This document shows, piece by piece, positions 10,857 through 33,026 of a DNA stretch of 33,684 bases (positions are counted from its first letter, which is position 1; every line of letters starts with the position of its first letter). The translations under genes and the position numbers were made by a program. The stretch is taken from assembly GCA_030603595.1 (NCBI GenBank), contig JAUVXL010000015.1:1-33684 (forward strand), given 5' to 3'. The notes beneath the pieces were generated by a model that did not search any database, was not told the DNA's origin, and was given only the letters and a program-made list of their open reading frames with translations. The DNA comes from Sedimentisphaerales bacterium (GTDB lineage: Bacteria > Planctomycetota > Phycisphaerae > Sedimentisphaerales > Anaerobacaceae).

Positions 10857-10930
10857 GGCGGCGTAGCTCAGTTGGTTAGAGCATGGGATTCATAAGCCCA
10901 GGGTCGTTGGTTCGAATCCAACCGCCGCTA
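10857..10930 (+). tRNA. tRNA-Met (CAT)
   Basis: A 74-nt cloverleaf has acceptor GGCGGCG pairing with CGCCGCT (first pair G-U), D-arm GCTCAGTTGGTTAGAGC, anticodon loop TTCATAA with anticodon CAT, and T-arm GTTGG-TTCGAAT-CCAAC. The 3' CCA is not encoded. It could be elongator or a CAT tRNA modified for Ile; the sequence alone does not decide with certainty. Confidence 0.95.
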
Positions 10931-11093: not shown

Positions 11094-11166
11094 GCCCCCA
11101 TCGTCTAGTGGCCTAGGATATCAGGTTCTCATCCTGGAGACAGGGGTTCGACTCCCCTTGGGGGTA
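11094..11166 (+). tRNA. tRNA-Glu (CTC)
   Basis: A 73-nt cloverleaf has acceptor GCCCCCA pairing with TGGGGGT, D-arm beginning TCGTCTAGTGGCCTAGGA as usual for tRNA-Glu, anticodon loop TTCTCAT with anticodon CTC, and T-arm AGGGG-TTCGACT-CCCCT. CCA is not encoded. Confidence 0.95.
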
Positions 11167-15247: not shown

Positions 15248-15335
15248 GGAGAGGTGTCGGAGTGGCTTATCGAGCAGCCTTGGAAAGGCTGTGTAGGGCT
15301 TGTCCCTACCGCGGGTTCGAATCCCGCCCTCTCCG
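15248..15335 (+). tRNA. tRNA-Ser (GGA)
   Basis: An 88-nt cloverleaf with a long variable arm has acceptor GGAGAGG pairing with CCTCTCC, anticodon loop TTGGAAA with anticodon GGA, variable arm TGTAGGGCTTGTCCCTACC and T-arm GCGGG-TTCGAAT-CCCGC. CCA is not encoded. Confidence 0.95.
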
Positions 15336-30849: not shown

Positions 30850-31893
30850 TTAGTTAGTATACCATCCCAATGCCTTCAACCTTTCAAAGGCAATCTTTAT
30901 ATGCTCATCTTTCATGATGGTTCTTTTTCTATTGGACCACTTATGCACAAACGAGGTCAATCGCTTTAGTTCCTTCGGTTTCTCATGGGTGGCAACCCAG
31001 TGAACAGTCGAAAGCAATTCCATTCCGTAAGGAGTCTCAAAGCCCTCAATCAACTTGGCCACACTGTCCAATCGTTCCTTCGTTGCCGGATGTTCCTGTA
31101 GATATGACGTAGCCAATGAATGAGCTTCTGGCAATACAGATATGGTCTTTTCAGGATTGTCATCACCTTCACCGAAACCGTCAATGAAATGTCCTTCAAT
31201 TAAGATCAGTACATGTCGAAGGTTCTCCGCATACGGGCCGTAGGATGCAGCTTTGTAATTGAGACGGAGCTTCTCACCAGCTTCCTGCATGAAATACATC
31301 AGCTTGTGGATTTCCAGAAGCGTTATGGAATCATCCAGCATGGCCTCCAAGTACTTCTTAACTAGCATGACCAGAGACGCACGTCCTACAGTCATTCCAG
31401 GCTTCCTAGTGCGATTCACCATTTCCTTGGCTTCGGGGGCACCCAAAGGCTCATAGATGTACACTTCCACATCTGTCAGGGTGCCCAGAACACCCTCGAT
31501 AATAGGACGTACCGTCTCCCAACTGAGTCCTCCCAGTCCACAGCCAAGCGGAGGGATGGAGATAGATCTGATGCCGAGCTTCTTGATCTCTTGTGCCAGA
31601 GCTCCCAAGCCGTCTTGTATATCCTTAAGCTTACTCCTACCTTTCCAATGGCGTTTAGTTGGTAAATTGACGATGTACTGCGGACCACCAAGAATTGAAA
31701 GCTTGTAGGTGTACACCATTCCGGGATGCAGCTTCTTTTCCTTGCAGACCTTGCGATACGCCTCAAAATTCTCTGGGTAAGCCTTCTTGAACTGTAGGGC
31801 GATCCCCCGGCCCATAATCCCCACGCAGTTGACTGTGTTAACCAGAGCTTCCGAATCTGCCTTGAGTATATTTCCCTGTTTAATGTAGATCAT
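30850..31893 (-). CDS. darG: DarG antitoxin, macrodomain DNA ADP-ribosyl glycohydrolase
   Basis: This 347-residue protein has an N-terminal macrodomain (about 1-155) with QGNILKADSEALVNTVNCVGIMGRGIALQFK and the loop IPPLGCGLGGLSWE. It removes ADP-ribose from thymidine in DNA. The C-terminal part (about 160-347: ASLVMLVKKYLEAMLDDSITLLEIHKLMYFMQ, ending in a basic KWSNRKRTIMK stretch) matches the DarG half that binds and blocks DarT. GGAATAGGC lies before the ATG. It begins 16 nt after the darT stop. Both antidote activities, enzymatic and by binding, look intact. Confidence 0.93.
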   Translation of the reverse strand: MIYIKQGNILKADSEALVNTVNCVGIMGRGIALQFKKAYPENFEAYRKVCKEKKLHPGMVYTYKLSILGGPQYIVNLPTKRHWKGRSKLKDIQDGLGALAQEIKKLGIRSISIPPLGCGLGGLSWETVRPIIEGVLGTLTDVEVYIYEPLGAPEAKEMVNRTRKPGMTVGRASLVMLVKKYLEAMLDDSITLLEIHKLMYFMQEAGEKLRLNYKAASYGPYAENLRHVLILIEGHFIDGFGEGDDNPEKTISVLPEAHSLATSYLQEHPATKERLDSVAKLIEGFETPYGMELLSTVHWVATHEKPKELKRLTSFVHKWSNRKRTIMKDEHIKIAFERLKALGWYTN

Positions 31894-31909: not shown

Positions 31910-32569
31910 CTAATAATACCAATTGCTCTTAACTTTCACCATCGGTTTGTGGGTTGCTAATTCAAGAGCAGCCTCTATTCTATCACAGACTGCCGGGCTG
32001 TTCACGCCAATTCCGGCAACGAGTTCCCAAGGGAAGAAATCAAACACGAGAAACTCAGCCTGCTTGCCTTCCTTGATTTCTGGGTCACGAAAGTCAGTGG
32101 CTCTGACAGCTTCCCAACTGATCTCTCCAAGATCCGACAAATCATAATAGAACTGCGTATATGTTGCTCCTGCATTGGTGGCTGTGAACGTCCATTTACC
32201 ATCATTTTTTTCTAAATATGCGACCACGTCCTTCAGTGACGAAACCAAGTGAACAATCGGACCTTGGCCGCCCCTGTATGTGAGATCAAGATGGTTGCCC
32301 TTGTGCAGCAAGTAAAGCATGACAGAGCGAGGGCAGAAATAGAAGGGAACATATTCTCCTACACAGGTCCCAGGATGGCAATCAACGTGAAGGCTTAATC
32401 TCCGTTGCTTAATTGCATTCATGCCGACATTCGTATTATCCAGCCCAAGGGCGATTCTCTTTGCATCCGAATACAATCCGCAATGTTCGATCAAGCTCGA
32501 CAGATTGTCCACATGAGTTATATGATATATGAATGGCTTGTTCGGGATTTGATCCTTGCGAGTTTTAAT
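31910..32569 (-). CDS. darT: DarT toxin, DNA thymidine ADP-ribosyltransferase (ATT start)
   Basis: This protein adds ADP-ribose from NAD to thymidine in single-stranded DNA. The family start PFIYHITHVDNLSSLIEH is only complete if the frame extends past the GTG at 32512. The frame upstream has no ATG, GTG or TTG before an in-frame TAG at 32590-32588. The ATT at 32569-32567 has AGAAGGAG 7 nt upstream, so I start there: 219 residues. NAD contacts are in HITH (16-19); IKQRR carries the arginine and GKQAEFLVFDFFPWE the glutamate expected to be catalytic; EYVPFYFCPRSVMLY and the C-terminal KSNWYY are typical. The region is AT-richer than its surroundings. Confidence 0.9.
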   Translation of the reverse strand: MKTRKDQIPNKPFIYHITHVDNLSSLIEHCGLYSDAKRIALGLDNTNVGMNAIKQRRLSLHVDCHPGTCVGEYVPFYFCPRSVMLYLLHKGNHLDLTYRGGQGPIVHLVSSLKDVVAYLEKNDGKWTFTATNAGATYTQFYYDLSDLGEISWEAVRATDFRDPEIKEGKQAEFLVFDFFPWELVAGIGVNSPAVCDRIEAALELATHKPMVKVKSNWYY

Positions 32570-33026
32570 AGTGACACTCCTTCTGCCCTACATCACATAC
32601 AGAATAACTGGAAGCCCTGTGGCTGTAACACGAAATCGAACTGCAAACCTGTTAGATTTACGCCGCAACGGACCATCAAAATCGCAGGCTGGAAGAGCCC
32701 TGCTCGGGGCCATAGAGACTCATGTCTGTGCCACTTCCGATCTAAGTTTATCCTGCGAGATGACCGTCGTCTATTTCGCCGTGGACCGTTCGTTCAAAGG
32801 CAATTGTTGGTATTGTAGCCGTTTCCGCAAAAGCCGCAAATAAATTTGCGGGCCAAAGTATTTTGGGGGATGTGTGGTCTGTGATCCATTCAGTCCGTGA
32901 GAATTTGTGAAACCTATGGCTCGTTCGTGCATCCGCGTTCGGAAAGTGGCTTTCCTGGACTACAGATAGCAATACGGGCTAATAGTCTTTGACTCGCAGG
33001 TTTGGTGCGGTTAACCTTCGAGGACT
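32570..33026. other. Intergenic region between darT and pgpA
   Basis: No gene could be supported. Frames on both strands here are short and of odd composition. It holds the darT ribosome site (32577-32584), a stem-loop CCGCAAA-TAAA-TTTGCGG at 32834-32851, and the leader of pgpA. The darT promoter should be here on the minus strand but no clear match was found. Confidence 0.5.
32834..32851. terminator. Hairpin CCGCAAA/TTTGCGG
   Basis: A perfect 7-bp stem has a 4-nt TAAA loop; the bases around it (GCC before, GCC after) do not extend the stem. It is followed on the plus strand by AAAGTATTTT. No gene ends just before it, so its role is open. Confidence 0.3.

What the first reader, a model, noticed from the sequence alone, without database searches (positions are those of the whole stretch)
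31910..32590. darT toxin probably starts at the rare codon ATT
The conserved DarT N-terminus (PFIYHITHVDNL) is encoded in frame upstream of the only GTG. Between the in-frame TAG (32590-32588) and that GTG there is no ATG, GTG or TTG. The ATT at 32569 has AGAAGGAG 7 nt upstream. AUU starts are known (infC, pcnB) and are weak and IF3-sensitive, so this would keep toxin output low. Starting at the GTG would remove the HITH NAD-binding motif and leave a dead toxin.
Basis: partly seen in the sequence, partly recalled or inferred. Interest (0 to 1): 0.7.

Follow-up and report, generated by a model that had tools for sequence, protein, structure and literature searches.

The report
darT toxin gene with AUU start
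A bacterial self-poisoning gene (darT, the DNA-modifying toxin of a toxin-antitoxin pair) appears to begin with the rarely used start codon AUU instead of AUG, and its nearest relative also lacks any normal start codon, which suggests that weak initiation is kept on purpose to hold toxin output below that of its antidote.

Summary
The darT frame (31910-32590, minus strand) is an intact DarT2 gene followed by an ATG-started darG. No in-frame ATG/GTG/TTG lies between the TAG at 32590-32588 and the first conserved strand. ATT at 32569-32567 sits 7 nt after AGAAGGAG. The only in-frame GTG (32512) would delete strand beta-1 and the NAD+ contacts H13/I14/T15.

The decisive test was the nearest relative (L003, 77% identity, contig coverage about 54x). 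It also has no ATG/GTG/TTG, and aligns without gaps as AGGAG-N7-ATC against AGGAG-N7-ATT here, similarity beginning at the Shine-Dalgarno. The body is under purifying selection (dN/dS about 0.20). A base error, a pseudogene or a frameshift therefore fit poorly.

Two unrelated darT genes also lack NTG starts: Peptococcaceae (ATT) and a planctomycete (CTG), both 7 nt after an SD-like motif. In 173 darT-darG pairs darT has the weaker start in 46, darG in 4 (p = 4e-10). infC of the same genome starts at ATA, so AUH initiation appears usable there.

Best reading: AUU-initiated DarT, translated weakly and probably restrained by IF3; a new member of a known kind. Low output and IF3 control are inferred, not shown.

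The parts
31910..32569 (-). darT coding sequence as proposed: start ATT 32569-32567, stop TAG 31912-31910, 219 aa
   Evidence: NF048013 234 bits, PF14487 212 bits; AlphaFold model pLDDT 90, best PDB match Thermus DarT 7omv, TM 0.88-0.91; R51, Y71, M78, E160 equivalents present
32567..32569 (-). proposed AUU start codon
   Evidence: no in-frame ATG/GTG/TTG upstream of HITH; aligned without gaps to ATC in nearest relative L003
32577..32584 (-). Shine-Dalgarno AGAAGGAG, 7 nt before ATT
   Evidence: predicted anti-SD duplex -8.6 kcal/mol, stronger than about 83% of NTG-started darT genes; AGGAG conserved in L003
32588..32590 (-). in-frame TAG that bounds the start search
32510..32512 (-). only in-frame GTG before the core: a valine codon inside HITHVDN, rejected as start
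   Evidence: codon is GTT in L004, GTC in L048; start here would delete beta-1, residues 13-19
32546..32548 (-). alternative in-frame ATC with AAGGA 4 nt upstream (weaker candidate start)
   Evidence: sequence; equivalent codon in L003 is TTC, so not conserved
30850..31893 (-). darG antitoxin (macro domain), ATG start 16 nt after the darT stop
   Evidence: NF048014 443 bits

Best explanation
This is a working darTG2 toxin-antitoxin operon whose toxin gene starts at AUU (32569). The strong Shine-Dalgarno AGAAGGAG at the usual 7-nt spacing positions the 30S subunit so that initiator tRNA pairs imperfectly with AUU. Initiation is therefore inefficient and is probably discriminated against by IF3, while darG starts at AUG. 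The effect would be antitoxin in excess of toxin, the logic shown for sigR(GTC)-rsrA in Streptomyces. Shown here: the anatomy, the intact conserved toxin, conservation of a non-NTG (AUH) start in the nearest relative, recurrence in unrelated darT genes, and a general weak-start bias of darT against darG. Inferred: that AUU is the codon used, that output is low, and that IF3 controls it.
For: No NTG in frame. Nearest relative L003 also has none, and AGGAG-N7-ATC aligns without gaps to AGGAG-N7-ATT, with similarity starting at the SD. Body dN 0.136, dS 0.672, no indels over 204 codons. Catalytic residues present. The GTG start would delete beta-1 and the NAD+ contacts. Unrelated darT genes L048 (ATT at -11, AGGGG-N7) and L012 (CTG at -11, AGGA-N7) also lack NTG, and -11 is the modal ATG position. 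In 173 darT/darG pairs darT is weaker in 46 and darG in 4, p = 4.5e-10. infC in the same genome starts ATA, and in 7 of 8 other same-family genomes ATA/ATT/ATC.
Against: No protein, ribosome-profiling or reporter data. L003 has two adjacent candidates (ATT ATC), so the exact codon there is ambiguous. Codons 2-15 show no purifying signal (dN about equal to dS, 14 codons). Absence of NTG starts is rare in darT (4 of about 173). Only one close relative is held; two same-genus genomes have no darT. The next relatives (L004, L005) have a usable TTG.
Confidence: 0.8

Rival explanations
1. Full-length DarT starts at another non-canonical codon in the same frame: ATC 32548-32546 (AAGGA, 4-nt spacing).
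For: AAGGA precedes ATC in the sequence; ATC is used by infC in relatives.
Against: Spacing is short; the equivalent codon in L003 is TTC without an SD; ATT has the stronger SD at 7 nt, shared with L003.
Confidence: 0.08
2. Sequence artefact or recent mutation: the real codon is ATG, or the contig holds a base error.
For: ATT is one substitution from ATG; the genome is a draft assembly of 361 contigs; reads could not be inspected.
Against: The independent relative L003 (167-kb contig, coverage about 54) also lacks any NTG and has ATC or ATT at the site; the same error in both is unlikely.
Confidence: 0.05
3. Initiation at the out-of-frame GTG 32577-32575 inside the SD, followed by a -1 frameshift into the darT frame.
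For: The +1 frame from this GTG is open for 19 codons to a TAA inside the HITH codons; a similar GTG lies in the SD of L048.
Against: No comparable NTG at the SD in L003 (its only +1-frame NTG is a distant TTG without SD); no recognised slippery heptamer; the GTG has no well-placed SD; SD motifs such as GGAGTG contain GTG by nature.
Confidence: 0.04
4. The gene is silent, or makes only a truncated inactive protein from GTG 32512 (decaying toxin).
For: GTG is the only conventional start in the frame near the core and would be chosen by gene callers.
Against: dN/dS about 0.20 against L003 with no stops or indels; H13, T15, R51, Y71, M78, E160 equivalents retained; no SD at GTG; the valine codon is not conserved as GTG.
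Confidence: 0.03

Closest known systems
infC (IF3), AUU/AUC/AUA start with IF3 autoregulation
   Same: AUH start behind a strong SD; present as ATA in this very genome
   Different: infC encodes the fidelity factor itself; darT is a toxin, so any IF3 effect would not be a self-loop
sigR-rsrA of Streptomyces (GTC start, IF3-repressed; PMC5472188)
   Same: first gene of a two-gene operon has a non-canonical start with strong SD; its inhibitor follows with a normal start; the inhibitor must be in excess
   Different: sigma/anti-sigma switch, GTC codon, experimentally proven; here toxin/antitoxin, AUU, comparative evidence only
S. aureus cvfC1 (AUU) and ccpN (AUA) (PMC13009471)
   Same: conserved AUU/AUA starts with extended SD, about 10% of AUG output
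   Different: not toxin-antitoxin genes; proven by ribosome profiling
DarTG2 systems (Thermus, M. tuberculosis, EPEC)
   Same: same toxin and antitoxin families, fold and catalytic residues
   Different: most darT genes start with ATG or GTG; no report of a non-NTG start was found in the held library

Membership tests
DarT2 toxin (NF048013 / PF14487) | profile match above curated cut-off over the full length | tested here: met
   234.4 bits (cut-off 150), model 1-204/204; PF14487 212 bits
DarT2 toxin (NF048013 / PF14487) | catalytic and NAD+ residues H13, T15, N19, R51, Y71, M78, E160 | tested here: met
   all present; H119 is N here, as in 120 of 148 homologues
DarT2 toxin (NF048013 / PF14487) | DarT fold | tested here: met
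   model pLDDT 90.4; 7omv TM 0.88/0.91, E 3e-22; DarT1 8baq much weaker
DarT2 toxin (NF048013 / PF14487) | ADP-ribosylates thymidine in ssDNA | not testable with these tools
   needs an enzyme assay
DarTG operon | adjacent DarG macrodomain antitoxin | tested here: met
   NF048014 443 bits, 16 nt downstream
Genes with an AUH start | no in-frame ATG/GTG/TTG upstream of essential N-terminal residues | tested here: met
Genes with an AUH start | strong SD at 5-9 nt | tested here: met
   AGAAGGAG, 7 nt, -8.6 kcal/mol
Genes with an AUH start | non-canonical start conserved in relatives | tested here: met
   ATC aligned in L003; but TTG at a different place in L004/L005
Genes with an AUH start | initiation at that codon shown experimentally; IF3-sensitive | not testable with these tools
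   needs reporter, ribosome profiling or N-terminal mass spectrometry

The most novel reading that the evidence does not exclude
darT genes have repeatedly evolved AUH/CUG starts as an IF3-gated toxin switch. DarT synthesis would report the state of the host initiation machinery (free IF3 relative to 30S), so disturbance of translation, for example during phage takeover, changes the toxin:antitoxin ratio, with darG insensitive because it starts at AUG.
Probability: 0.12. Interest if true: 0.8.

Novelty: new member of a known kind. Interest (0 to 1): 0.5.

Why it matters
Genes proven to use AUU/AUC/AUA starts are few and mostly concern translation itself. A toxin gene with such a start, mirrored in its nearest relative and echoed in unrelated darT genes, points to start-codon choice as a way of setting toxin:antitoxin ratio. 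Gene callers that allow only ATG/GTG/TTG would truncate this toxin at GTG 32512 and lose its NAD+-binding strand, so such genes may be misfiled as partial or dead. The bias of darT towards weaker starts than its partner darG (46 to 4 pairs) is a general, easily tested result.

Tried and rejected
GTG 32512 start: rejected (codon variation, structure). Upstream in-frame GTG/ATG at 32596-32591: followed directly by TAG. -1 frameshift from GTG 32577: not conserved in L003. Structured leader or riboswitch: fold z-score +1.36, no Rfam hit at darT. Sigma-70 promoter or terminator upstream: none found by the simple scan. Pseudogene: rejected by dN/dS about 0.20 and intact residues. Apparent no-NTG hits L129, L199, L200 and L220 are longer, more distant proteins and were not counted; L118 is cut by the contig end. 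infC regex attempts that printed nothing; fixed. The excess of no-NTG starts in darT over darG (4 vs 0 in 126) is not significant by itself (p = 0.12); the overall weak-start bias is.

Full report
Observation. The darT frame on the minus strand runs from TAG 32590-32588 to TAG 31912-31910. Its codons up to the conserved motif are GGC AGA AGG AGT GTC ACT ATT AAA ACT CGC AAG GAT CAA ATC CCG AAC AAG CCA TTC ATA TAT CAT ATA ACT CAT GTG. None is ATG, GTG or TTG before the GTG at 32512. AGAAGGAG (32584-32577) is followed by 7 nt and ATT (32569-32567).

Identity. The protein read from ATT is 219 aa and matches NCBIfam toxin_DarT over the whole model (234 bits, cut-off 150) and Pfam DarT (212 bits). 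The next gene is DarG (443 bits, cut-off 250), ATG-started, 16 nt after the darT stop. The AlphaFold model (pLDDT 90.4) matches Thermus DarT 7omv with TM-score 0.88/0.91. R51, Y71, M78, E160 and the NAD+ contacts H13, T15, N19 (residue roles from PMC9967889) are present; H119 is Asn here, as in 120 of 148 homologues.

Why GTG 32512 is not the start. In the model, strand beta-1 is residues 13-19 (FIYHITH) and the GTG is codon 20. A start there loses beta-1 and the H13/I14/T15 contacts. The codon is a plain valine: GTT in L004 and GTC in L048.

Relatives. The nearest homologue found in about 85,000 species genomes is L003 (Phycisphaerales MAG, 77% identity, contig of 167 kb with coverage 53.8 in its name). 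It is the same place as L083/G032. It has no in-frame ATG/GTG/TTG either. The two DNAs align without gaps from the SD onward: AGGAGTGTCACT-ATT-AAA here, AGGAGCGCAATT-ATC-AAA in L003, and similarity fades upstream of AGGAG. Over 204 codons from HITH on, dN = 0.136 and dS = 0.672, with no indel, so both genes are held by selection. The next relatives L004/L005 (66%) have a TTG 7 nt after GAGAG. Two genomes of the same genus have no darT.

Survey. DarT and DarG N-termini were mapped onto profile alignments in all loci fetched. Among 177 DarT-like frames the best available start was ATG in 129, GTG in 34, TTG in 6 and none in 8. Of the 8, four are longer or divergent proteins. The other four are this gene, L003, L048 (Peptococcaceae; AGGGG-N7-ATT, 11 codons before H13) and L012 (Planctomycetota; AGGA-N7-CTG, 11 codons before H13). 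Eleven codons is the modal ATG position. DarG in the same loci: 183 ATG, 7 GTG, 1 TTG; its single 'none' is a spurious hit in a 447-aa frame. In 173 loci with both genes, darT has the weaker start in 46 and darG in 4 (sign test p = 4.5e-10). The rule was conservative: an ATG anywhere in the allowed range counted as ATG. Caveats: loci are related to each other, and the sample was drawn by similarity to this DarT.

Host competence for AUH starts. In this genome infC has no NTG and reads AAGGTAAGGTGG..ATA; eight other genomes of the same family read ATA (2), ATT (3), ATC (2) and GTG (1). The hosts of L048 and L012 also appear to start infC at ATT and ATC. Start assignments for infC are by sequence only.

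SD strength. The predicted duplex with the anti-SD is -8.6 kcal/mol here, -6.6 in L003, -7.9 in L048, -4.2 in L012 and -9.0 for infC of this genome; the medians for ATG and GTG darT genes are -5.1 and -5.8. The anti-SD core was assumed, not read from this genome's 16S gene. A strong SD behind a poor start codon fits the pattern of proven cases: sigR has AGGAGGTG before GTC (PMC5472188), and S. aureus infC, cvfC1 and ccpN have extended SDs before AUA/AUU with about 10% of AUG output (PMC13009471).

Mechanism. Shown: the anatomy, an intact selected toxin, and a non-NTG start position shared with the nearest relative. Inferred: the 30S subunit is placed by the SD, initiator tRNA mispairs with AUU, and IF3 destabilises that complex, so DarT is made well below DarG. 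This matches sigR-rsrA, where changing GTC to ATG, GTG or TTG or weakening IF3 gives excess SigR over its inhibitor. The least certain point is whether IF3 activity varies enough in nature to act as a signal; the simplest reading is a constant low setting.

Alternatives. ATC 32548 behind AAGGA-N4 is not conserved. A base error would have to be paralleled in L003. The GTG-plus-frameshift model has no conserved counterpart in L003. No leader structure, Rfam element or sigma-70 promoter was found. No paper in the held library describes a non-NTG start in darT; subscription papers are mostly missing, so this is weak evidence of novelty.

Verdict. Observation confirmed, interpretation supported. 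It is a new member of the small class of AUH-started genes, within an ordinary DarTG2 operon, plus a general weak-start bias of darT that deserves a proper test.

Noticed in passing
G000 contig C294:2030-2548 (L134 1474-2067 and 2078-2728): The same genome carries a second, divergent darT-like gene (GTG start, 197 aa) followed by an ATG-started macrodomain gene of 216 aa, just downstream of what looks like a glutaminyl-tRNA synthetase gene.
   Followed up: partly
L104, L098-L103, L105, L106 (infC loci): infC of this planctomycete family starts at ATA, ATT or ATC behind a long SD (AAGGTAAGGTGG), except one genome (G039) where a GTG stands at that place.
   Followed up: partly
L004, L005 (66% relatives): Their DarT starts at TTG only 6 codons before H13, so the variable N-terminal tail seen in the window is probably dispensable for the family.
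   Followed up: partly
L048 2832-3473 and L012 3001-3642: Two further darT genes, in a Peptococcaceae bacterium and a planctomycete, with no ATG/GTG/TTG; candidate starts ATT and CTG at the modal start position.
   Followed up: partly
window 10857-10930, 11094-11166, 15248-15335: Three tRNA genes on the + strand.
   Followed up: no
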